A DNA stretch of 64,000 bases from an uncultured Paracoccaceae bacterium (lineage in GTDB: Bacteria > Pseudomonadota > Alphaproteobacteria > Rhodobacterales > Rhodobacteraceae): NCBI GenBank assembly GCA_905182105.1, contig CAJJAR010000013.1:1-64000 (forward strand). Reading direction: 5' to 3'. Positions 2,507 through 52,782 of this stretch are shown here, piece after piece. Below the pieces are notes generated by a model, which did not search any database, was not told the origin of the DNA, and worked only from the letters and a program-made list of their open reading frames with translations. The position numbers and the translations under genes are program-made. How positions within the stretch are numbered: the stretch's first letter is position 1; each line of letters opens with the position of its first letter.

Positions 2507-2770
2507 TTAGTATTTAATGGTTTTGCCATTTTCTGATTTATCGCTGCTAAATCCCATGGATTCATAATAGGCCAACCCTTTGGGGTTAGTGTCCCCGATA
2601 GTTGCATCTATTTTCTGTAGCTTTGTGTTGACCGCATCGTTGATCAATCGATAAACGATGCCCTAGCCAAGGTCATGTGCAAACCTGCCGTTTCGATTGC
2701 CAGATTGTTGTCGCCGTATCTTCGTTCTAGACATGTTTGCCATCACGTGCATACCGTCCCTCAACGTTAG
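2507..2770 (-). pseudogene. GNAT acetyltransferase remnant
   Basis: Reading minus from a stop at 2507-2509, the frame gives a GNAT-like C-terminal half: GIVYRLINDAV followed by ATIGDTNPKGLAYYESMGF and ending KTIKY. The second piece matches the typical N-x-x-A-x-x-x-Y-x-x-x-G-F end of GNAT folds. An in-frame TAG at 2663-2665 falls inside the acetyl-CoA loop (HDLG-stop-GIVY, where R/Q-x-x-G-x-G/A is expected). The sequence upstream of that stop is short and has no convincing N-terminal half. The 5' boundary given is approximate. I read it as a dead, truncated gene. Confidence 0.7.
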
Positions 2771-2789
2771 TTTCAGGTAGAAAACCCAC

Positions 2790-3185
2790 ATGTCAGGCGA
2801 AACAAATTTGGATGAGTTGATCCGCTCATTGTCCGCAGTTCTGGTTGAGGGTCTATATGTCTTTACCACCGTAAAAGCCCCTCAAGACCTGATGGGAATT
2901 GTGCCGCGCATGAGTTTTGGCGAGGCTGAGGGGACCACCTATATTTTGCTAAAGTCAGAGGCAGAGCAGTTGGGGGTGGCGTATGAATTTCCATGCCGGA
3001 TGATTACGCTGAATATTCATTCGTCCCTAGAGGCCGTTGGGTTTATGGCCCGCATCGCGACGGAGTTGGCCAAGCATGACATGGGCGTGAATCCAGTGTC
3101 GGGCTTTTTCCACGATCATCTGTTTGTCCCGGATGGGCGCGAGCAGGATGCGATGAATGTGTTGATGGAGATGTCAAAGCGCTAA
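2790..3185 (+). CDS. ACT-domain protein (ACT_3 / DUF2241-like)
   Basis: A small cytosolic protein of 131 residues made of a tandem ACT-like fold, resembling the DUF2241/ACT_3 family. Typical features are an early SAVLVEGLYVF strand, the central MITLNIHSSLEAVGF motif, and a C-terminal NPVSGFFHDHLFVP segment. ACT domains usually bind small ligands such as amino acids, but this family has no defined role. It is followed by a strong bidirectional terminator shared with convergent pyrG. Confidence 0.8.
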   Translation: MSGETNLDELIRSLSAVLVEGLYVFTTVKAPQDLMGIVPRMSFGEAEGTTYILLKSEAEQLGVAYEFPCRMITLNIHSSLEAVGFMARIATELAKHDMGVNPVSGFFHDHLFVPDGREQDAMNVLMEMSKR

Positions 3186-7168: not shown

Positions 7169-7571
7169 CTAGCTGTCGACATCACCCATGTCGGCCTGAC
7201 CTGACAGTGCGCGTCGCACGTGGCTCCAACTAAGGCCGACACCCAAGACGAGGGAGAGGGCCAATAAGCCCAGCCACACGTTCATGCCTGTGTTATCGAG
7301 ACTAAACGCGAAAATCATAGAGCACCCATAGCAATGCCCTAACAGGGGCGAGTACCAGCAACATGCCAAAGCCGCCGATTGAGCGTAGCGTGGCCCGCAA
7401 ATAGATGATTTTGCCGATCAGAAGGAGCAAACCGGCCAGAACCAACAGTGAAACGGGGCGTTCGCCCTGTGTCATCACCTATTTCACATAATTAAATGAT
7501 GTCGGATTATAAGTCGCTGCAAGCAGTGCAAAAACCGTAAGCCAACGTAAAACAAACCAATTTCAACACAT
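7169..7571 (-). pseudogene. DUF6524 membrane protein, broken by a stop and a frameshift
   Basis: Read minus from about 7571, the translation gives a DUF6524-like four-helix membrane protein in pieces. The first piece runs VLRWLTVFALLAATYNP to FNYVK, then an in-frame TAG at 7479-7481 where Trp is expected. It resumes with GERPVSLLVLAGLLLLIGK and YLRATLRSIG to LLWVLYDF. The frame then runs into a stop at 7302-7304, while the family C-terminus continues in another frame (SLDNTGMNVWLGLLALSL to GLSWSHVRRALSG) to 7169. The expected N-terminal ATG at 7569-7571 is also followed by TGA. Three lesions make this a pseudogene. Confidence 0.8.
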
Positions 7572-21921: not shown

Positions 21922-21922
<1 letters not shown>

Positions 21923-22554
21923 TGTTGAACGGGGTGCGGCGTCTGTCGTTCTGCGCGTTGCTGCGCCCCATTCGCTCCGCGCTGCTGGCCGCGTGTTTGT
22001 CGCCACTGGCCCACGAGGCTGTTGCGTAAACGATCACCAGTGCAGCCTATACTGATCCAACAACGCGTTATGCGCATGGCATCCTTGGGGATGCGATTGA
22101 GCATGGGGCGCTTGTGATCAAGCTCAGTAACGCCAAGACGGTTACAATCACGCTACCCCAGTCAGATGTTTTTGAAGACGCCGCGCCGCGCCTATTGGAT
22201 GTGGATGCGGATGGATCACCTGAAGTCGTTGTTGTGCAAAGCAACGCGCGACTTGGTACAAAACTGGCCATCTACGACGAAACTGGGTTGATTGAGCTAG
22301 CCTATATTGACCGCCCATATCTTGCCAAAACTTTGATGATTTGGTGGTTTGAAGGTGGCAAATTACGCTTTGTCAGTGAGTTGGCTGGTTACACGAACCA
22401 TCGCATTGGTGAACGCGATATCGCGGGCGGTATTCGCACCTGTAGCGGGATGCCTGAAATGATTGTTGAGCGGGCGGATTGGTCTGAGATGGCCGCGATC
22501 ACCTTTGACGCGAAAGATTTCGTGGTAAAGACTATTGTTGGAATTACATCCTGA
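21922..22554 (+). pseudogene. Secreted VCBS/FG-GAP-like protein interrupted by a stop
   Basis: From the ATG at 21922, overlapping the ferredoxin stop, the frame gives a signal-peptide-like start (LRPIRSALLAACLSPLAHEA) and then meets TAA at 22027-22029. The same frame continues without a break to 22554: TITSAAYTDPTTRYAHGILG, then AAPRLLDVDADGSPEVVVVQ, a VCBS/FG-GAP-like calcium-binding strand, to the end. The 3' part alone could start at a GTG at 22114 but would lack the signal peptide. I read it as one nonsense mutation in a periplasmic beta-propeller-like protein of unknown function. Confidence 0.7.
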
Positions 22555-22600
22555 CCTGCCTTTGCCACAGCCATGACCTGTAACGATTAAGGCGTCGGTC

Positions 22601-26691: not shown

Positions 26692-27876
26692 TTACTGCGC
26701 AGCCTCAATAGCCTGCAATATATCAGCAATCAGATCGTCTGTGTCCTCAATCCCGATTGAGATTCGGACAAGGCCATCGGTTATTCCTAACAGGACTTTT
26801 TGATCCTGTGGCAAGCGCTGGTGTGTTGTTGTAGCTGGGTGCGTCAGGATTGTTTTTGCGTCACCTAGGTTGTTGGAGATGATCGCAATCTTGGCCGCGT
26901 TCAGGAACTTGAATGAAGCTTTGCGCCCGCCTTTGAGTTCAATGGCCAGCATGGTGCCGCCTTTGCCCATCTGCTCTGCAACCAACGCAGATTGTGGGTG
27001 ATCAGTTAGGCCGGGATAAATAACGCGCTCCAAGGCGGCATGCCCTTGAAGACGTGTTGCCAACGCATGCGCAGTTGTTGTTTGTGCACGAACGCGCAGG
27101 TCCATTGTTTCAAGGCCTTTGAGGTGCAGCCAAGCGGTGAAGGGCGACATAGAGCCGCCTGTGTGTTTCATGAAAGGTTCAAGCGTGCCACGGATGTAGT
27201 CGCGGCTGCCTAGGACGATGCCGCCCAATGCGCGGCCTTGGCCGTCGATGTGTTTCGTCGTGGAATACACAATAACATCGGCACCTTGGGCAAAAGCGTT
27301 TGAATAAACAGGGGTTGCGAAGACATTGTCAACAACAACCAACGCGCCATTGGCGTGGGCAATCTCTGACACTGATTTGATGTCGATCACTTCGAGAGTT
27401 GGGTTGGACATGGATTCAAAAAACACGACATCCGTTTCAGATGTTATGGCCTGTTTCCATTCATCCAGATTGGTGCCGTCCACAAAGGTCACGTCGACGC
27501 CATAGCGTGTTAGGATGTTTTCGAGCACATAAAGACACGACCCAAATAGTGCGCGTGAGGACACAACTTTGTCGCCCACCTTGAGCATAGACATCAGCGC
27601 ACCAGAAACCGCAGCCATTCCAGATGCAGTGGCAAAGCTGTCTTCGACACCTTCAAGGGCGGCAACGCGGTCTTCGAACATTTTGACTGTTGGATTGCCG
27701 TAACGTGCGTAGATAAATTCGTCTGGACCGGCTTCTTCAAAGCGCGCAGCGGCGTCTTCGGCGGTGTCGTAGACAAACCCTTGGGTTAAGAAGATTGCCT
27801 CTGACACTTCGCCGTATTGGCTGCGGCGTGTGCCGGCATGTACGGCTTTGGTCCGTGGATTCCATTCATCAGTCAT
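26692..27876 (-). CDS. metZ: O-succinylhomoserine sulfhydrylase
   Basis: A PLP enzyme of 394 residues that makes homocysteine from O-succinylhomoserine and sulfide for methionine synthesis. Cys/Met metabolism family features include YARYGNPTVKMFE near residues 56-68, ATASGMAAVSGAL near 82-94, and the PLP lysine Lys208 in YSTTKHIDGQG. The AHAGTRR-like start and the lack of a cystathionine-lyase signature favour MetZ, as does the upstream SAM-II riboswitch. The start at 27876 follows GGAGA at proper spacing; the Met four codons earlier is less likely. Confidence 0.93.
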   Translation of the reverse strand: MTDEWNPRTKAVHAGTRRSQYGEVSEAIFLTQGFVYDTAEDAAARFEEAGPDEFIYARYGNPTVKMFEDRVAALEGVEDSFATASGMAAVSGALMSMLKVGDKVVSSRALFGSCLYVLENILTRYGVDVTFVDGTNLDEWKQAITSETDVVFFESMSNPTLEVIDIKSVSEIAHANGALVVVDNVFATPVYSNAFAQGADVIVYSTTKHIDGQGRALGGIVLGSRDYIRGTLEPFMKHTGGSMSPFTAWLHLKGLETMDLRVRAQTTTAHALATRLQGHAALERVIYPGLTDHPQSALVAEQMGKGGTMLAIELKGGRKASFKFLNAAKIAIISNNLGDAKTILTHPATTTHQRLPQDQKVLLGITDGLVRISIGIEDTDDLIADILQAIEAAQ

Positions 27877-27911
27877 AGTCTTCTCCATTGGCCTGAAAAT
27901 GGGTTGGCCAC

Positions 27912-27948
27912 AAAAAAACCCCCGAACGCATGGTCAAGCGAAGGGAGG
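27912..27948 (-). terminator. Terminator-like hairpin in the metZ leader
   Basis: On the minus strand, downstream of the SAM-II aptamer and before metZ, an imperfect GC-rich hairpin (arms CCTCCCTTCGC and GCGTTCGGGGG) is followed by seven T. This suggests transcription attenuation as the expression platform. The stem has an internal mismatch, so its strength is uncertain. Confidence 0.6.
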
Positions 27949-27954
27949 CTTCAT

Positions 27955-28015
27955 CCTGACCTTTTAGCGGTACTTGTTTAACGTGGCCCGCAATCAGGTA
28001 ACAAATCGCCACGGA
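27955..28015 (-). ncRNA. SAM-II riboswitch (metA RNA motif)
   Basis: The minus strand about 80 bases before metZ carries the SAM-II signature elements in order: GTGGCGATTTG, a short variable loop, TTGCGGGCCAC, GTTAAACAAG and CCGCTAAAAGG. The 5-bp P1 stem GTGGC/GCCAC is intact. The rest is expected to form the H-type pseudoknot that binds S-adenosylmethionine. SAM-II is known mainly in alphaproteobacteria before met genes. High SAM should lower metZ expression. Confidence 0.92.
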
Positions 28016-30834: not shown

Positions 30835-31758
30835 ATGAAAAGAGATCAGATGAAACGAACTCTGTATGCAAGCGTTATTGCAGGGTTTTGTGCGATGATC
30901 CCTGGTGTTTTACTGGCCAATGCCCCGGGAACCATGAGCAGCCTGGCACAATCTGGGCAGGTTGATTGTATTCGCCCCGACCATTTTGTTTTTGATTTGT
31001 GCCAGCAAATCGAGAATGTCAGTCGCAATAACGGCATTGATCCAGGTTTTTTCGCGCGTTTACTGTGGCAAGAAAGCTGATTTGATCCAAACGCACTGAG
31101 CCACCCAGGGGCACAAGGGATTGCGCAATTCATGCTCCAAACAGCTAAATTACGCGACCTCCCTGACAGCTATAATCCAGCCCAAGCGATTGAGCGATCT
31201 GCCAACTATCTAGGCGAGTTGCAGCGTACTTATGGCAATGCTGGTTTAGCGGCGGTTGCCTATAATGGGGGCGAAGGGCGCGCGAATGGATTTACGAAAG
31301 AGGGTAAAAGGCTGGCCAGTGAGACAGTGAAATATGTCCCGATCATTTCGGGTTAAGTGCTGAACGTTGGTGTGATGCCCCCCCCCCCGAAAGTGCAGGA
31401 TTTTCGCCTAGATGAGGACACGCCGTTTTTGCAAAACTGTCTGAAACTAGCCAGAGTTCGCAGACTGACCAAATTGTCGCCACTGGGCCCCAAGCACAAA
31501 GCGTGGGGCGTGCAGCTGGCATTTTGGCGTACAAAATCTGAGACAAAGGCGGAGGTTGCACGATTGCGCAGTAGTTGCCGTGCGTTGGTAAAATCAGAAA
31601 AGACGCACTATTTGTCGATCAAATCGCGGGTGCAGGGCAAACCAGCCTACTTTACAGCGCGCATTGGACAAAATACAAAGGACCTTGCAACCACCCCATG
31701 CCGCAAAATCGGCAGCAGAGGATGTTCTTGCAAGGTTTATAAGAACAAGGTCGATTAG
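30835..31758 (+). pseudogene. Lytic transglycosylase, broken by a stop and two frameshifts
   Basis: A secreted SLT-type lytic transglycosylase gene. A signal peptide (LYASVIAGFCAMIPGVLLANA) leads to the catalytic motif GFFARLLWQES, where the Glu should be the catalytic acid. TGA at 31078-31080 then follows directly, where Arg is expected, and FDPNALSHPGAQGIAQFM continues in frame. The frame stops again at 31354-31356. In the next frame the sequence LSAERWCDAPPP reads like the family linker, and at a run of eleven C (31378-31388) the original frame returns (VQDFRLDEDTPFLQNCLKLA to the end). So there is one nonsense codon and two compensating frame slips. It is not functional as read. Confidence 0.8.
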
Positions 31759-33452
31759 ATCTCGTCTGCGAAGTGCTGCATCGTCAGCTTGATCGGGTTT
31801 GGCGCTGCCTGACCAAGACCGCAGATAGATGCATCTGTCATTGCCGTGCACAGTTCGGTCAACAGCGATTGATCCCATGTTTCGGATTGCATCAGCAGCA
31901 CCGCTTTTCCACATCCAACGCGGCAGGGTGTGCATTGCCCACAGCTTTCGTCCTCAAAGAAACGCAGCATGTTCAGGGCCGCATCACGGGCGCGATCCTT
32001 TTGGGACAAGACAACAACGGCAGCAGAACCAATGAAGGTGCCGTGTGGTTGTAATGTATCAAAATCAAGCGGGATGTCGTTCATCGACGCAGGCAACAGG
32101 CCGGATGACGGGCCGCCCGGTTGATAGGCTTTGAATTCATGCCCATCCGCCATGCCACCAGCCGCGGCAATGATGTCAGTGATGGTTGAGCCTGCGGGCA
32201 ACAAGTAAACGCCGCCCTTTGCCACACGACCAGAAACGGAGTAGCTGCGCAAACCTTTGCGGCCATTCAGTTCTGTTGTGTTCAGGCACTCTGGACCTTC
32301 GCGGCAAATCTTCGCGATCCAGTAAAGTGTTTCGACGTTGTGCACTAAGGTGGGCTGGCCGAAAATACCAACTTGCGCCACGAACGGTGGGCGGTGGCGT
32401 GGCATACCACGTTTGCCCTCAATGCTTTCGATCATCGCGGATTCTTCACCGCAGATATAGGCACCAGCACCACGACGCACTTCGATATAACCCACGTCAA
32501 CTATGCCTGTGTCTTCGAGAGCTTTAATTTCGCGCGCCAAAATTTCCAAGACAGCGGGGTATTCATCACGCATGTAGATATAGGCGCGATCTGCCTCAAC
32601 GGCCCATGCTGCGATCAACATGCCCTCTAAGAACAGATGCGGTGTGCGCTCTAAGTAGTAGCGGTCTTTAAACGTACCTGGTTCGCCTTCATCCCCGTTC
32701 ACGGCGATATAACGTGGTCCTGCGTTGCCACGTACAAAGCCCCATTTGGTGCCTGAAGGGAAACCTGCACCGCCAAGGCCACGCAAACCGCTTTCCTTGA
32801 TCTTGGCTTGAAGGTCTTCCCAATGGCCGTTTGCACGCAGGTCTTTGAGGGCGGCGTAACCACCGTCAATCGCGTATTTGGCGTGGGTTTCGTATGTTGG
32901 GATATGGGCGTGGGTGTCATCAGCTGCGATGGCCGCTTCAACCTTTTTGAACGTCGCGTTGTCGATGTGGTTGTGGCCGATTTCCAAAACAGGTGCGGTG
33001 TCACAACGGCCCATACAAGGAGCGCGCAAAACGCGGACCTCTTCGGGGTTTAAACCGTCCTCTAGGGCGGATTTCAGTGCTTGTGCACCAGCAAGTTCAC
33101 ATGACAGTGAATCACAGACACGGATTGTAAGGGCAGGCGGTGGTGTGTCGGCTTCTTTGACCACATCAAAGTGGGCGTAAAAGGTGGCGACTTCGTAGAC
33201 TTCGGCCATAGACATGCGCATTTCTTCGGCCAGCGCACGAAGGTGCGCTGCACTGAGGTGGCCATAGGTATCTTGGATCTTGTGCAGGTGTTCGATCAAC
33301 AAATCCGCACGGCGTGGTTCTGTGCCAAGCAATGCTTTGACTTCGTTCCATGCCTGATCGGTCAATTGACGGCCTTTGGTGTGGTGACGCCCTTTGCCTT
33401 TGCCAGATTTCCAAACGCCATCACCGTGTTTTTTCAGTGTATCAGTGGCCAT
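31755..33452 (-). CDS. NuoE-NuoF fusion, NAD-dependent formate dehydrogenase beta subunit type
   Basis: A 565-residue flavin iron-sulfur subunit. The N-terminal NuoE-like thioredoxin fold (to about residue 165) has Cys ligands in VCDSLSCELAG and APCMGRCDTAP for a 2Fe-2S cluster. The NuoF-like part has the FMN/NAD motifs SGLRGLGGAGFPSGTKW and NGDEGEPGTFKDRYYLE, then RRGAGAYICGEESAMIES, and the 4Fe-4S motif ESCGQCTPCRVG near residues 500-511. This fused arrangement matches the beta subunit of tungsten/molybdenum NAD-linked formate dehydrogenases (Fdh1B of methylotrophs) rather than complex I. The catalytic alpha subunit is normally adjacent but is absent here. Its end overlaps the broken transglycosylase by 4 bases. 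Confidence 0.88.
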   Translation of the reverse strand: MATDTLKKHGDGVWKSGKGKGRHHTKGRQLTDQAWNEVKALLGTEPRRADLLIEHLHKIQDTYGHLSAAHLRALAEEMRMSMAEVYEVATFYAHFDVVKEADTPPPALTIRVCDSLSCELAGAQALKSALEDGLNPEEVRVLRAPCMGRCDTAPVLEIGHNHIDNATFKKVEAAIAADDTHAHIPTYETHAKYAIDGGYAALKDLRANGHWEDLQAKIKESGLRGLGGAGFPSGTKWGFVRGNAGPRYIAVNGDEGEPGTFKDRYYLERTPHLFLEGMLIAAWAVEADRAYIYMRDEYPAVLEILAREIKALEDTGIVDVGYIEVRRGAGAYICGEESAMIESIEGKRGMPRHRPPFVAQVGIFGQPTLVHNVETLYWIAKICREGPECLNTTELNGRKGLRSYSVSGRVAKGGVYLLPAGSTITDIIAAAGGMADGHEFKAYQPGGPSSGLLPASMNDIPLDFDTLQPHGTFIGSAAVVVLSQKDRARDAALNMLRFFEDESCGQCTPCRVGCGKAVLLMQSETWDQSLLTELCTAMTDASICGLGQAAPNPIKLTMQHFADEI

Positions 33453-33687
33453 GTGCTGTCTCCGCAGTCAAAGTCGATCAATAATTGAAGGTTTGGTAGC
33501 AGGATTTGGTCGGATGATTACCCTCAAAAACGACAGTTCAGGGTGGGTTTCAGATCACTTGGCCTTGGGTTCAGCACGAATAGGAGGCAAGGTTTCCTAA
33601 AGTGAACGGCTGGTGGGCGTGAAAGCATTGCTTATTGTTGAAAACGGGGGGTTATAAAGTTGGTGCCTAATTAAGAGAGCTCAGAAC

Positions 33688-34711
33688 ATGCGCCCGATGA
33701 TGACCTTTGCATTTGCAAGCCTTTTGCCAGCATTTTTGTTGGTTCTTGCGAGTGGGTTTGGCGGCATTTTTCCATTTGCCAGTGTCCTGAGCATTACCGT
33801 CGTGGTTTTCATTTTGGATCGCATTTCAAATGTCGAACCCGTCGAAGTTTCCGCCGATAGTGGACATGATTTGTCTTTGCTGATTGGCGTTGTTCATTTC
33901 GTTGTTTTGCCAATGAGTATTTGTGGGATCGCGCAAGCAGGCCACTTGTCGACCTTGGACTGGCTTCTTATCTTTATCTGCGCGGGGCTGTGGTTAGGCC
34001 AAGTCTCAAACTCGAACGCACATGAGTTGTTTCATAGATCTTCAAGCGGGCCACGCCAGTTGGGTGTTGCAATTTATTGCTCGCTCTTGTTTGGACACTA
34101 TGCAAGTGCCCACCCCAAAGTGCATTATGTTTACGTTGCAACGGATCGTGATCCAAATTCTGCGCAATCTGGCGAGGGTTTCTATCGCTTTTTAATACGG
34201 GCATGGTTGGGCGGGTTTCATGAGGGACTGGTGGCCAAAACACTGCACTTGGGGGGCAAAGCAAGTACTGTCACGTTGGTCTCATCCCTATGTTGGATAC
34301 ACAGCAGGTGGGGTTTTGACAGTTTCTGCCTCTTTGGTCATCGGCGGGTTTACAGGCCTAGGCAAGCTGTTGGCCCTTGCAGCCGATGCGCAGATCCAGT
34401 TGTTTCTGTCCGATGACTTCCAGCACTATGGCCTTCGTCGTGAGATGCTGGAAGGTGGCCGACCCGAACTTATTGGCCCATGTCACTCTTGGAACGCGCC
34501 GCATTGGTATTCCAGCGCGATGATGCTGAATGCGCCACGCCATTCTGATCATCACACACGACCAAGCCGAAGCTTTCCATCATTGGGATTGGATGAAAAC
34601 ACAATGTCAATGCTGCCCCAACCTTTGTCTGTGATGGCTTGTTTAGCCCTGGTGCCAATTATCTGGCGCAGGGTTATGGATCGCTGTGTGGCAAAGTGGA
34701 TGGCCCTGGAG
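33688..34711 (+). pseudogene. AlkB-like membrane di-iron monooxygenase, frameshifted
   Basis: Two overlapping frames together give one alkane 1-monooxygenase/fatty acid desaturase-like protein. Frame one covers the first helices, the His box NAHELFHR and the HPKVHYVYVATDRDPNSA box, up to AWLGGFHEGL. The match then passes to the +1 frame near 34250-34280 (a G6 run lies at 34251-34256), continuing SRWSHPYVGYTAGG, FQHYGLRREMLEGGRPELIG, HSWNAPHWYSS and the third box NAPRHSDHH. In box two the second His of the usual HH pair is Tyr, removing an iron ligand. The frame has no stop before the next gene. I judge it inactive. Confidence 0.78.
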
Positions 34712-35125
34712 ATGATACGTTTTTACAAACTGATATTACGGATTTTGCTAACGGGTTTTGTTTTGATTGGCGGAGGCGCAAATGCTGAAACGATGACTGC
34801 ATCGGAGTTTGACGCCTATACCAAAGGTAAAACGCTTTTCTTTGGTCAAACAGGAAAACCATATGGGGCAGAACGGTATCTGGAAAACCGTCGGGTTCAG
34901 TGGTCATTCTTGGATGGTATCTGCAAAGATGGCTACTGGTATGAAGAGGCCGGCGAGATTTGCTTTATTTATGAAGGTAAAAATACACCTCAATGTTGGA
35001 CATTTGAAGAAGGCCCCAGCGGTTTGATTGCGCGTTTTAGTGGTGATCCTCAGAAAGTTGACCTGTATGAAGTGCAAAATTCGGATCAGGAAATGATCTG
35101 TTTAGGGCCTCAAGTAGAGGTTTAA
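34712..35125 (+). CDS. Small secreted protein of unknown function
   Basis: A 137-residue protein with a signal peptide (FYKLILRILLTGFVLIGGG, cleavage expected after ANA) and a mature domain beginning ETMTASEFDAYTKGKTLFF. Tyr, Trp and Cys residues (CKDGYWYEEAGEICFIYEG, QCWTFEE) suggest a compact disulfide-bonded periplasmic fold of the kind found in other Rhodobacteraceae. The frame is open continuously from the broken AlkB-like gene, so the true start is uncertain (34700 or 34712); GGAG abuts the chosen ATG. A possible read-through fusion is noted. Confidence 0.65.
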   Translation: MIRFYKLILRILLTGFVLIGGGANAETMTASEFDAYTKGKTLFFGQTGKPYGAERYLENRRVQWSFLDGICKDGYWYEEAGEICFIYEGKNTPQCWTFEEGPSGLIARFSGDPQKVDLYEVQNSDQEMICLGPQVEV

Positions 35126-35152
35126 GTGGCGCACGTTGTTTGATCCACACGC

Positions 35153-35178
35153 AGCCGCTCACTAAGTGAGCAGCGGCT
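35153..35178 (+). terminator. GC-rich hairpin after the small secreted protein
   Basis: Outer arms AGCCGC and GCGGCT (35153-35158, 35173-35178) enclose a second TCA/TGA pairing. No T-run follows, so it is a weak terminator candidate. Confidence 0.4.
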
Positions 35179-35271
35179 ATGCGCATTCAGCATTGGTAAC
35201 TCAGAGCGGTGCATTTTAGTTGGACCACACGGGACGGGCCCGTCATTCGAAGATTTCGAAAAGGTTTCAAA

Positions 35272-35499
35272 ATGTTAGTACAATCTACAAACGCGCAAAT
35301 CTATTTTGGTGGCTTTACAGCAGTAATTTCATCTTTTTTTGTAAAGATAATCGAAAATAGCGTGATGGCACGTTCTGCTGAAGTGCGTAGCGAACAAATC
35401 GCAGCTTTGAACGCAAAATCAGATGCTGAACTCGCAGCTATGCGGCTTAACCGCAGCGACATCGCTCTTCATGTGTTCCGCGATCGTTTGTACATCTAA
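35272..35499 (+). CDS. Small DUF1127-like protein
   Basis: A predicted 75-residue protein. The N-terminus has a short hydrophobic segment (FGGFTAVISSFFVKII) and the C-terminal part SEQIAALNAKSDAELAAM then ALHVFRDRLYI resembles the DUF1127 tail, whose small Arg-rich members are common in roseobacters and often stress related. I chose the ATG after AAAGG at 35272; the frame is open from 35209. It precedes trkH by about 60 bases. The family call is tentative. Confidence 0.6.
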   Translation: MLVQSTNAQIYFGGFTAVISSFFVKIIENSVMARSAEVRSEQIAALNAKSDAELAAMRLNRSDIALHVFRDRLYI

Positions 35500-38670: not shown

Positions 38671-40440
38671 TTATCTCCAGCAGCTGACCAGAACAGTCAT
38701 GCTGCGCGCAGCTACAGAAATGTCTTCTGCAGCCATCTGTTCTGTTGAATTGGCTGTTTGGCTCGATTTTCCAGCATCACTCAATGCTGCCTGAACAGTT
38801 TCACGATCTAGCGAAAAGGCAACGTCAGCAGGCAATTGTGGGCCAGTCGATAGTGCTGGAAGCAACATGCCCAACACACCACCAGTTGGATCCAAAATTG
38901 GACCGCCGGCATCGCCAGCCAGAGCGGTTAGCGCCATACGGTTCAGGTATTCCTCGCCGCGCAAACCGCGCAGATCAGACAACGTTTCGTCGGTGACTGA
39001 ATGAGAGTCCAATACACCTTCATAGCTGTAACCCGCCACTGCTATTTCAGTGTTTAACCGCGGTGTTTGCGCGCTGAATGCTGCAACGTTTAAAGGAGAT
39101 AGCGCCTCATTTGGTGTCAAAACCGCTACGCCGTTGTTTGATGTTGAAACCAAGGTGGCCTCATATAAATCGTCAATGGTAATGCGGGCGCAGCTGTCGA
39201 CAGCGTCTGTTGTTGTGACAACAGTGCCGCGGCTATCGATATAAAACCCTGAACGGGAAACCGCAGGCTTGCTAACTTCAAGGCCAAAAACTAAATCGAT
39301 GGCTTGATCCTCATCAGACCCTGCTGTTGGGTCCAAAACTGCAGCTGACCGGACCAAACTTTTGTCCATTTCACCAATCAAACGACGGCGACGTTCTTCG
39401 TCACCAGCAGGCCACATCCAGGTGAAACCTTTGATTTAACCGTTGGCCAGGCTAATGGGAGTTTCGCTCACCATGGTGGCGTTTTCACCTATTAAGACAA
39501 AGCTGTTATTTTTACGCTCACGCGGGCCGTCCAGTGGAACTGCTTCTAGTGTCTGCATGGTGTCGTAGAGACTATAGAGTGTGTTTTGATCACCCGGCTG
39601 GCTGACAAGTAAAACGCGCGCGCCGGTGTCATCCACAGACTTATACTGAGCAAAAGGTGACTCATATTTCTCAAATGCAACTTCGAGCGTTGGAAGCTTA
39701 ATTTCGATAACTGCAGCGTCATCGCGAACAACCTCGAGGCCCAGGCCATCAAAGATTGAGTTATATTTTTTCAAAATTTCAGCACGTTGTGTGGTCGTTA
39801 AAATGCCAGCAGTATCATAGCTATTTGCTTCTTGCCATGCAGCCATCGAATTACGTGTGCCACGACCGAACGACCCATCAATTGCTGCGTTGTAAAAACC
39901 AGCCCACTGTAACAGACGTTGCAATTTTTTCTTTTCTTCCCGGCTCAGTGCACCTTTGCTACGCTGAGCTTCGGCAGGTGTTTCGCCAGCGGGTTCAACG
40001 AGCTCAACCTCAACAAGGGATGTTGGCTCCGCTGTTGGTGTTTCGTCAGCATCTACTATTTGTGTCTCAGCTTCGATCGGAGCAGGGGCTACCTCAAGGT
40101 CTAGGATATTTGCTCCAACCGGCCAAAATTGTTGACGCAGGCTTGAGGATTCTGCGATGACTGCGACGCGTGGGATTAGTCCGTCGCGGTGATAAGGCAG
40201 TAACGCCGTCTCAGCATCCGCACGTGTGTAAGGACCTAATGCAATACCATGCCAACCGCCGCCTAGAGCGAAGCCATTAACATCTTCTAGAATTTCAGCA
40301 TAGCCACGCGCAGCTTCTGTGCCGGCACGCAAACTAGATTGAGCTTCAATTTAAATCCATACGACTTCATGGGCTGATTGTGCTGCCTCTGGCATTGCCC
40401 AAGCCCACAGTACCAAAGTTAGAGAAAGGAGATTACGCAC
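38671..40440 (-). pseudogene. Peptidoglycan-binding/trypsin-fold secreted protein with two in-frame stops
   Basis: A single minus-strand frame runs from a GTG at 40440 to 38671. Its start is a signal peptide (LLSLTLVLWAWAMPEAAQSA) and then EVVWI, TAA at 40351-40353, IEAQSS. The usual reading is WIQIEAQ, so CAA to TAA is likely. A peptidoglycan-binding domain follows (LQRLLQWAGFYNAAIDGSFG near 300 bases in). A second TAA at 39436-39438 falls between LANG and IKGFTW, after which a trypsin-fold domain runs to the end. There the usual GDSGGP reads GDAGGP, so even the intact ancestor may have lacked protease activity. Confidence 0.78.
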
Positions 40441-40647
40441 AATTTTGTGAATCAATGTGCTGGATACCTTGCAATCATTTAGTTTCGGTTAAATAAGCAG
40501 GAATTCGCTGCAATTGCCATAAGCTAAGTGACATAAAAAGAATGCTTTGGGTGCAATTGACCACAGTTGTTGAGAAGCTTAGGTAAGACGCGGCTTATAA
40601 TGCCGATTGCAACGGCGAATTGAACCGCATTTCGATACAGTCAGGAC
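40441..40647. other. Intergenic region upstream of glyQ
   Basis: About 207 AT-richer bases between the broken secreted gene and glyQ. They must hold the glyQ operon promoter. I found no T-box, glycine riboswitch or hairpin that I can defend. Confidence 0.5.
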
Positions 40648-51071: not shown

Positions 51072-51989
51072 TTATCTTCTAAACAGCTTACGAAACGCAC
51101 CGTATTGCGACAATCCAACGCCTGCCAAAATCAACACCATTGCCATGATCAATGATGTGGGTAGTGGTTCGCCCAAAAGCAAGGCACCTAACACGACGGA
51201 CCAAACAGGCACTTGGTAGTTTGTGATAGACATGAAGACTGGCCCTGCAGAGCGGATAACCAGTGTACGCAAGAAGTTTGCAGCAGCCGTTGGAATTAAG
51301 CCCAAAAGCGCAATCACGATCATTGTCTTAGTGGATGGCATAGGCGGAAAGCCTTCCACAATCAGTGCAATTGGAATGACGATCGCGGCAGACATGATTA
51401 GCAGCACGGTAGACAATCCGATGGTGTCAATCGCAGGCAAACGGCGCATCATTATGGAGTTGACCCCATAACACATGGCTGCAATCAAACAGGCAAGCCG
51501 TCCTGCGGTTTCCAAAGATGCGCCCGTACTTTCAAACGCTTTCGCACCCATCAGAATAACAACTCCACAAAATCCGATCGAAAAACCAAGTGATTTTCGC
51601 CATGTAAGGCGTTCACCTGGTACGAAAAAATGTGCTAATGGGAGGACCATTAACGCGATTGCAGCCATCGAAACACCAGCAAAGCCGCCCGTGACGTATT
51701 GCTGACCCCATGCCAATAACATGAAGGGAATTGCAGAGCTTAGAGCCCCCATAATCCACATGACCAACTTGGTTTTTTGTGTCGGCGGTTCTGCGAATAA
51801 CGCCCCTCCGCGCGCTTGCCAAATTGCGTACATAAGTATCGAAGCAAATGCGATGCGGCCAGCTGCAAGCCAAAAGGGAGTGATACCCTCTAGTGCGATT
51901 TCTGTAACAATGAAAGTGCCACCCCACGTGAAACCCAAAAGTACCACCATCATCCAGCTTCTTGCTGTGATTTCAGAGGTTTGTATCAT
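51072..51989 (-). CDS. EamA-family (DMT) transporter, copy 4
   Basis: A 305-residue ten-helix DMT transporter. The N-terminal repeat starts WMMVVLLGFTWGGTFIVTEI and the first signature is GERLTWRKSLGFSIGFCGVV near 128-147. The second repeat ends with ALLLGEPLPTSLIMAMVLIL. The start overlaps the stop of the upstream broken Asp/Glu racemase by 4 bases (ATGA), so the pair once formed an operon. The amino-acid racemase partner hints at amino-acid related export, but that partner is now dead. Confidence 0.9.
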   Translation of the reverse strand: MIQTSEITARSWMMVVLLGFTWGGTFIVTEIALEGITPFWLAAGRIAFASILMYAIWQARGGALFAEPPTQKTKLVMWIMGALSSAIPFMLLAWGQQYVTGGFAGVSMAAIALMVLPLAHFFVPGERLTWRKSLGFSIGFCGVVILMGAKAFESTGASLETAGRLACLIAAMCYGVNSIMMRRLPAIDTIGLSTVLLIMSAAIVIPIALIVEGFPPMPSTKTMIVIALLGLIPTAAANFLRTLVIRSAGPVFMSITNYQVPVWSVVLGALLLGEPLPTSLIMAMVLILAGVGLSQYGAFRKLFRR

Positions 51990-52652
51990 GCTTTTAAATT
52001 TCCTGACGAAGAGGCCGCGACGGCTAGGACTTTCTGAGTTGCTAACATCGGCGAGGACAAGGTGGGTACCCCTAGATCACCTAGGGTATTGGTGACGACA
52101 CGCATAGAGGTTTGTGCCAAAACGATGCGATCGGGTGTGCCTTTATTAACAATGGACTGGCGAATTGTCTTGCTTATTTCGCTTGAGATAGTTGTCATAT
52201 GTCCGGCTTCGAAATGTGGCCAAGCTGTGTCACATAGCATTAGTTCTATGGATATTGATGATCCAATTTTCTTTGCGGAGTTTTCCAGCAATGCCAAGGT
52301 GGCGTCACGTGTGCTTTCAAGGCAAATAGTGACCATAATTTTTGTGCCTGTTTCTATTGCGTCTTCCATCATTGGACAGTCAATTCGGGCAGTGTTAGGG
52401 TGGGTTTGCGCAAAGCTATCGACCAGTGGGCCAAGGGTTGAGCAGGTGCAAAGCACTGCATCGGCGGTACTCAACTGTTCAAGTATTTCTGAGGTTTGGG
52501 TTGTGATGCTCAACAAGCCATCAGTTTGTGCACTCGCAAGCAGTTCAGGGGCGACGTGATGGGTTTGTACGTTTTTGGGGTGCTATCTCATCGACCAGCG
52601 CTTCGAAGGTTTCAATGTGAACCTGAGCGGTGTGGAGGAATGCAATTTTTAT
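51986..52652 (-). pseudogene. Asp/Glu racemase family gene with frameshift and lost start
   Basis: The minus strand encodes a racemase-like protein in two frames. The N-terminal part is IKIAFLHTAQVHIETFEALV, where the expected initiator ATG is ATA at 52650-52652. The frame breaks in a five-T run (52572-52576, AAAAA on the coding strand) and resumes as THHVAPELLASAQTDGLLS. It continues intact to the end with ADAVLCTCSTLGPLVDSF (catalytic Cys), MVTICLESTRDATLALLE and RIVLAQTSMRV. The C-terminal 176 residues are open but lack the first substrate half-domain. It overlaps EamA copy 4 by 4 bases. Confidence 0.75.
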
Positions 52653-52748
52653 TTCGGGGTACCACGTTTTCTAAGCTGTCGGCTAAGGTAGATAGCTCAT
52701 GGCAGACAATGAATATAATAAAGTCTTTTTTTGACAAGTCCAAAGGAT

Positions 52749-52774
52749 GTGGGGTCGGATTATTCTGACCCCAC
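52749..52774. terminator. Stem-loop downstream of ilvC
   Basis: An 8-bp perfect stem GTGGGGTC/GACCCCAC (52749-52756, 52767-52774) around a 10-base AT-rich loop lies 9 bases beyond the ilvC stop. A U-run is lacking on the minus strand, so termination strength is uncertain. Confidence 0.55.
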
Positions 52775-52782
52775 AAAAGTTT

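What the first reader, a model, noticed from the sequence alone, without database searches (positions are those of the whole stretch)
33688..35125. Frameshifted AlkB-like monooxygenase running open into a secreted protein gene
The gene has a +1 shift near a G6 run and a His to Tyr change in the second His box (VHYVYVAT). The second frame has no stop and continues into the next gene with a signal peptide. The remnant might be translated as a fusion, or the start of the secreted protein may be internal.
Basis: partly seen in the sequence, partly recalled or inferred. Interest (0 to 1): 0.5.

Follow-up and report, generated by a model that had tools for sequence, protein, structure and literature searches.

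The report
Decayed AlkB-like gene beside secreted-protein gene
An oxygenase-like gene in a marine roseobacter has been wrecked by two small deletions, a lost metal-binding residue and a lost stop codon, while the neighbouring gene for an exported protein looks intact; this is ordinary gene decay.

Summary
Against syntenic relatives (same genus; record titles say Ascidiaceihabitans), the AlkB-like gene at 33688-34711 carries two one-base deletions 15 nt apart (34236/34237, and beside the G6 run 34251-34256), net +1 frame. Codon 147 is Tyr where relatives have the His that aligns with iron ligand His172 of solved AlkB; codon 138 and other near-invariant positions are changed too. The second frame runs on because the gene's stop, TAG in close relatives, is GAG here (34709-34711). 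In those relatives the TAG abuts, in frame, the ATG of a 137-aa exported-protein gene, so one substitution makes the apparent 301-aa fusion. The exported protein most likely still starts at ATG 34712. Of the 80 best homologous loci none is fused, none has the His changes, and 78 carry the exported-protein gene directly downstream. Two congeners also have broken copies. In this genome 20 of 155 comparable genes are broken, its other AlkB paralogue included, and broken genes are more divergent than intact ones, so decay is likelier than sequencing error. Verdict: an ordinary pseudogene with stop loss; a functional fusion or frameshift product is unlikely. No reads or expression data were available.

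The parts
33688..34236 (+). AlkB-like gene, codons 1-183, first reading frame
   Evidence: aligns from codon 1 with the intact 341-aa genes of G008 and G005
34099..34101 (+). codon 138, His to Tyr (TAT)
   Evidence: H in 80 of 80 loci; sequence
34126..34128 (+). codon 147, His to Tyr (TAT); aligns with Fe1 ligand His172 of solved AlkB
   Evidence: ligand list in PMC10113152 (passage)
34236..34237 (+). first one-base deletion (between these bases)
   Evidence: alignment with G008
34251..34256 (+). G6 run; second one-base deletion beside it
34253..34708 (+). AlkB-like gene, codons 190-341, second reading frame
   Evidence: 87.5% aa identity to the G008 C-terminal part
34414..34416 (+). stop codon TGA that ends the first frame
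34709..34711 (+). GAG in place of the AlkB-like stop TAG (stop loss)
34712..35125 (+). open gene of a 137-aa exported protein (signal peptide by eye; predicted 8-stranded beta protein)

Best explanation
A decaying pseudogene. In this lineage an AlkB-like membrane diiron protein gene lost function and took on two one-base deletions, replacement of a metal-ligand histidine and of other near-invariant residues, and loss of its stop codon. In close relatives that stop (TAG) directly abuts, in the same frame, the ATG of the next gene of a conserved pair, so one T-to-G change makes the remnant's second frame run into the exported-protein gene. The exported protein still starts at ATG 34712, or four codons upstream at the in-frame ATG 34700, which would only lengthen the signal peptide. 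It is probably made without the translational coupling that its relatives may use. Shown: the lesions, the conserved pair, the conserved start in close relatives, and broken copies in congeners. Inferred: loss of enzyme activity, the start used, and the loss of coupling.
For: Intact 341-aa orthologues with TAG directly followed by the next ATG in G008 and G005. Two deletions and TAG-to-GAG. Of 90 columns at least 90% conserved in 76 outgroup loci, the window departs at 11, G008 at 1, G005 at 1; window-G008 differences hit such columns in 10 of 56 cases (15.0 expected at random), G008-G005 differences in 0 of 26 (7.0 expected, binomial p 0.0003), Fisher between the two sets p 0.026 (at 95% and 99% conservation the Fisher p is 0.051 and 0.17). 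H147 aligns with Fe1 ligand His172. Broken copies in G002 and G003. Of 80 loci none is fused and 78 have the exported-protein gene directly downstream. In this genome 20 of 155 genes of at least 150 aa are broken; broken genes have a median of 92.1% aa identity to G008 against 97.2% for intact ones, Mann-Whitney p 5e-6; 8 have nonsense changes only, 7 frameshifts only, 5 both. Control at a slightly stricter identity filter: 19 of 154 broken in this genome, 6 of 154 the other way, 4 of those 6 being fragments or fusions of genes already broken in this genome. The mature part of the exported protein has dN/dS 0.089 to G008, the AlkB-like gene 0.247.
Against: dN/dS of the AlkB-like gene to G008 (0.247) is well below 1, as expected of recent decay but no proof of it, and a 75-aa neighbour has 0.281. 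Branch counts polarised by G005 gave no significant excess of replacement over silent changes (Fisher p 0.20 to 0.71), and a recombination mosaic makes that polarisation unreliable. The window at 33.5-33.9 kb differs by 22-30% from all four close relatives, so part of the divergence may come from an imported or deeply split allele. Eight of the nine metal-ligand histidines remain. No reads were available to exclude errors at single positions.
Confidence: 0.9

Rival explanations
1. Assembly or sequencing errors: the gene is intact in the organism and the lesions are artefacts.
For: One deletion borders a G6 run; lesions in some other genes lie at runs (C8 at 26547, C11 at 31378). Runs of 7 or more G/C number 6 in this 112.5-kb contig against about 6 in 236.7 kb of G008. 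The genome is a draft of 49 contigs. No reads were available.
Against: Indel errors would not bring substitutions at near-invariant residues or lower the identity of broken genes. The first deletion is not in a G/C run. The stop loss is a substitution and 13 of the 20 broken genes carry nonsense codons. All G/C runs of 6 or more taken together are no more frequent than in G008 (16.1 and 16.0 per 100 kb). Congeners also carry broken copies.
Confidence: 0.06
2. A functional fusion: the C-terminal AlkB-like remnant (from a start at or after 34220) is translated with the exported protein as one polypeptide.
For: The frame 34220-35125 is open and contains several in-frame ATG codons.
Against: No fusion in 80 loci. 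The remnant lacks His boxes 1 and 2, carries replacements at conserved positions, and would bury the signal peptide.
Confidence: 0.02
3. Recoding: a +1 slip on the G6 run rejoins the two frames and makes a full-length AlkB-like protein.
For: The sequence shows that the net shift is +1 and that a tRNA on GGG could re-pair one base on within G6 (reasoned, not tested).
Against: G6 is a short, ordinary run (12 runs of exactly 6 G or C in this 112.5-kb contig). The product would lack Fe1 ligand H147 and carry Y244D and two lost prolines, and would run on into the exported protein because the stop is gone.
Confidence: 0.01

Closest known systems
AlkB alkane 1-monooxygenase (solved chains 8sbb_A and 8f6t_A)
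   Same: The profile of intact relatives matches both chains (E 5e-55 over residues 43-374 of 399; E 2e-52 over 92-365 of 471). At the nine positions that match the His ligands of FtAlkB, 79 or 80 of 80 loci have His.
   Different: The window copy is frameshifted and lacks one ligand histidine. The clade has Gln (24 of 24 in A1) where FtAlkB has the Fe2 carboxylate ligand Glu271, and no NCBIfam model matched any of the 24, so alkane oxidation should not be assumed.
Pseudogenes of Roseobacter-group genomes
   Same: Frameshifts, nonsense changes and stop loss in a genome with 20 of 155 comparable genes broken. PMC12661815 (passages only) gives pseudogene shares of 3.5-15.3% for its pelagic clusters.
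   Different: The counting method differs and those clusters are other lineages.
Lipocalin-like small beta proteins (for the exported neighbour)
   Same: Predicted eight-stranded beta fold; best VIA-align Z 8.2, rmsd 3.0, 87 residues aligned.
   Different: No family-wide match in Pfam and no credible one in the PDB by sequence; no Foldseek match at E 0.001. The Z value is in the range that may mean only a common arrangement.

Membership tests
Pseudogene | Reading frame broken relative to intact orthologues at the same place | tested here: met
Pseudogene | Loss of constraint at residues conserved in orthologues | tested here: met
   11 of 90 conserved columns departed, against 1 of 90 each in G008 and G005; the branch-wise silent/replacement test was not significant
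Pseudogene | No full-length product | not testable with these tools
   needs proteomics or ribosome profiling
AlkB-type membrane diiron hydroxylase | Sequence match to solved AlkB | tested here: met
   for the intact relatives; PF00487 in G008. The window's C-terminal ORF matches PF00487 only below the cut-off and its N-terminal ORF not at all
AlkB-type membrane diiron hydroxylase | Nine His ligands of the diiron site | tested here: not met
   eight present, codon 147 is Tyr; ligand list from PMC10113152 (passage)
AlkB-type membrane diiron hydroxylase | Fe2 carboxylate ligand (Glu271 in FtAlkB) | tested here: not met
   Gln in 24 of 24 rows of A1, placed by the alignment; the clade is AlkB-like, not shown to be AlkB
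AlkB-type membrane diiron hydroxylase | Alkane hydroxylation | not testable with these tools
   no assay
Gene fusion | Fused arrangement conserved in relatives | tested here: not met
   0 of 79 loci that hold both genes; the eightieth, L094, lacks the second within its flank
Lipocalin-like fold (exported neighbour) | Eight-stranded barrel with structural match | tested here: inconclusive
   Z 8.2, rmsd 3.0, 87 aligned; no Foldseek match at E 0.001

The most novel reading that the evidence does not exclude
The remnant is still used: its second frame is translated (after reinitiation, or a +1 slip on G6) and delivers the exported protein as an N-terminally extended fusion, replacing the stop-start adjacency of the relatives.
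Probability: 0.03. Interest if true: 0.4.

Novelty: new member of a known kind. Interest (0 to 1): 0.12.

Why it matters
It matters little by itself. It explains an apparent fusion that automatic annotation could call as a 301-aa protein, and it shows how a stop lost in a dead upstream gene of a tightly packed pair makes a spurious fusion in one step. The more useful by-products are the conserved pairing of an AlkB-like gene with an uncharacterised exported protein in Rhodobacteraceae, and the sign that this genome is losing many genes, including both AlkB-type genes found in it.

Tried and rejected
Sequencing error as the full cause: rejected because broken genes are also more divergent and many carry nonsense codons, and because of changes at near-invariant sites.

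Poly-G artefact or phase variation at G/C runs: all runs of 6 or more are as frequent as in G008, but runs of 7 or more are about twice as frequent (6 in 112.5 kb against about 6 in 236.7 kb), and one C11 run stands out. Not pursued.

Branch-wise dN/dS with G005 as outgroup: no significant replacement excess, and undermined by the recombination mosaic. The count (47 window-only residue changes) was therefore not used as a rate; conserved-column tests against 76 outgroup loci were used instead. Dropped before that test, 4 of 80 loci: L092 (G008), L093 (G009), L097 (G002) and L101 (internal stop in its match).

Function of the exported protein: no Pfam, NCBIfam or PDB sequence match of weight; its 57-row alignment uses 56 of 78 homologues found. 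The fold comparison is suggestive only.

Plasmid search: 14 records, the best at 41% identity. Promoter and terminator scan of 33400-35300: no more matches than shuffles give. Literature: AlkB structures (passages in 51 and 68), Ascidiaceihabitans with pseudogenes (passages in 52), Roseobacter AlkB, stop-codon loss; listings and passages only, no whole paper read. No paper on this gene pair appeared in those listings.

Full report
What is there. The ORF from ATG 33688 ends at 34416, and a second ORF, +1 in frame, is open from 34220 to 35125. The window lies in a 2.66-Mb draft genome of 49 contigs, 88.5% complete. G008 is syntenic over most of the contig with about 94% nucleotide identity.

The lesions. 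In G008 and G005 the gene is intact with 341 codons, and its stop is directly followed by the ATG of a 137-aa gene. The window has two one-base deletions relative to G008, one between 34236 and 34237 and one beside the G6 run at 34251-34256. The stop TAG is GAG at 34709-34711. Because stop and ATG abut in one frame, that single substitution is enough to open the second frame into the next gene.

The histidine changes. At codons 138 and 147, 80 of 80 homologous loci have His and the window has Tyr; at codon 244, 80 of 80 have Tyr and the window has Asp; at codons 308 and 315, 80 of 80 have Pro and the window has Ser. The 80 loci are the best kept of 575, and two of them (L097, which is G002, and L101) have a stop inside the match. 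In the alignment to two solved AlkB chains, H147 falls on the second His of the GHH motif. In FtAlkB (PMC10113152, passage seen) the ligands are His137, His141, His167, His172 and His314 for Fe1, and His171, His272, His311, His315 and Glu271 for Fe2. The spacing of H112, H116, H142, H146 and H147 here (4, 26, 4, 1) equals that of His137, 141, 167, 171 and 172, so H147 corresponds to His172; which PDB entry belongs to that paper I did not check. Eight of the nine ligand histidines remain.

Loss of constraint. Against 76 outgroup loci the window departs from 11 of 90 columns that are at least 90% conserved, G008 and G005 from 1 each. Window-G008 differences fall on such columns in 10 of 56 cases (15.0 expected at random), G008-G005 differences in 0 of 26 (7.0 expected; p 0.0003); Fisher between the two is p 0.026, and 0.051 and 0.17 with stricter conservation cut-offs. 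Results that do not help: dN/dS to G008 is 0.247, above three neighbouring genes (0.046, 0.056, 0.138) and the exported-protein gene (0.172), but below a 75-aa gene (0.281) and below 1; branch counts were not significant. Along 31.7-33.9 kb G008 resembles G005 and the window stands apart, with 22-30% divergence from all four relatives at 33.5-33.9 kb; from about 34.1 kb the window mostly groups with G008, but in the 34.5-34.7 kb bin G008 is again closer to G005. So recombination has shuffled this region, and part of the divergence may not be decay.

Congeners. Of 12 genomes of the genus, own included, open orthologous frames are seen in 5 (G001, G005, G008, G009, G011) and broken copies in 3 (the window's genome, G002, G003); 4 (G004, G006, G007, G010) show only partial or more distant matches or none, several of these genomes being far from complete. 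G002 lacks an internal stretch that includes the first His box and is shifted. G003 has in-frame stops and lacks most of the C-terminal half (partly read by eye), and its exported-protein gene looks shifted too (by eye only).

The rest of the genome. Over two contig pairs, 20 of 155 genes of at least 150 aa are broken in this genome; the median aa identity of broken genes to G008 is 92.1% against 97.2% for intact ones (p 5e-6); 8 have nonsense only, 7 frameshifts only, 5 both. The identity of frameshifted genes is somewhat lowered by out-of-frame ends; for the AlkB-like gene the in-frame figure is 279 of 335 residues. With a slightly stricter filter 19 of 154 are broken in this genome and 6 of 154 the other way; by position 4 of those 6 are fragments or fusions of genes already broken in this genome. 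The second AlkB-type gene, on contig C1, intact in G008, is also frameshifted beside its first His box. PMC12661815 (passages) reports pseudogene shares of 3.5-15.3% for pelagic Roseobacter clusters, so such a load is not extraordinary.

The exported protein. A homologue was found in 240 of 295 family genomes sampled. In 78 of the 80 named loci it lies directly downstream of the AlkB-like gene; L094 has none within the flank and L167 has it upstream; none is fused. The window copy has 137 codons; its mature part has dN/dS 0.089 to G008. Four cysteines (71, 84, 95, 130) are invariant in 57 sequences. The model (mean pLDDT 85, pTM 0.74) has a signal-peptide helix, a second helix and eight strands; structural matches include lipocalin-like small beta barrels with Z up to 8.2, rmsd 3.0 over 87 residues, none significant by Foldseek. 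Function is unknown; a periplasmic small-molecule-binding role is a guess.

Mechanism. Ribosomes starting at 33688 should stop at 34416, about 300 nt before ATG 34712, so any coupling through the adjacent stop and start of the relatives is gone (inference). Initiation at 34712, or at the in-frame ATG 34700 four codons upstream, gives a normal-looking signal peptide. Longer starts would bury it. A +1 slip on G6 could rejoin the AlkB frames in principle, but the product would lack a metal ligand and have no stop of its own.

Verdict. An ordinary decaying gene with stop loss next to an apparently intact gene.

Noticed in passing
window 2697-3185, 7169-7561, 21922-22587, 26692-28012, 30835-31758, 38671-40455, 51986-52776: Further genes that look broken against G008 (frameshifts or nonsense), among them an SLT/SPOR gene, a Cys/Met PLP enzyme shifted at a homopolymer near its start, and a peptidoglycan-binding/trypsin-like gene with two nonsense changes.
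   Followed up: partly
G000:C1:369170-369178 (locus L002): The second AlkB-type gene of this genome is frameshifted by two one-base deletions 8 nt apart; it is intact in G008.
   Followed up: partly
window 34712-35125 and 78 of 80 loci L092-L171: Conserved pair of an AlkB-like gene and an uncharacterised exported protein (four invariant Cys, predicted 8-stranded beta fold) in Rhodobacteraceae, without a Pfam family.
   Followed up: partly
alignment A1, column of residue 246 in L003: The clade has Gln (DYVQHYGL) where solved AlkB has Glu (Fe2 ligand Glu271 of FtAlkB), so its chemistry may differ from alkane hydroxylases.
   Followed up: no
window 31700-34700: Recombination mosaic: G008 switches between resembling the G005 clade and the window near 33.9-34.7 kb.
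   Followed up: partly
window 31378-31388: A C11 run in the broken SLT/SPOR gene, the longest G/C run of the 112.5-kb contig.
   Followed up: no
locus L101: The AlkB-like match in this Marinovum MAG has a stop inside it, possibly a further broken copy.
   Followed up: no
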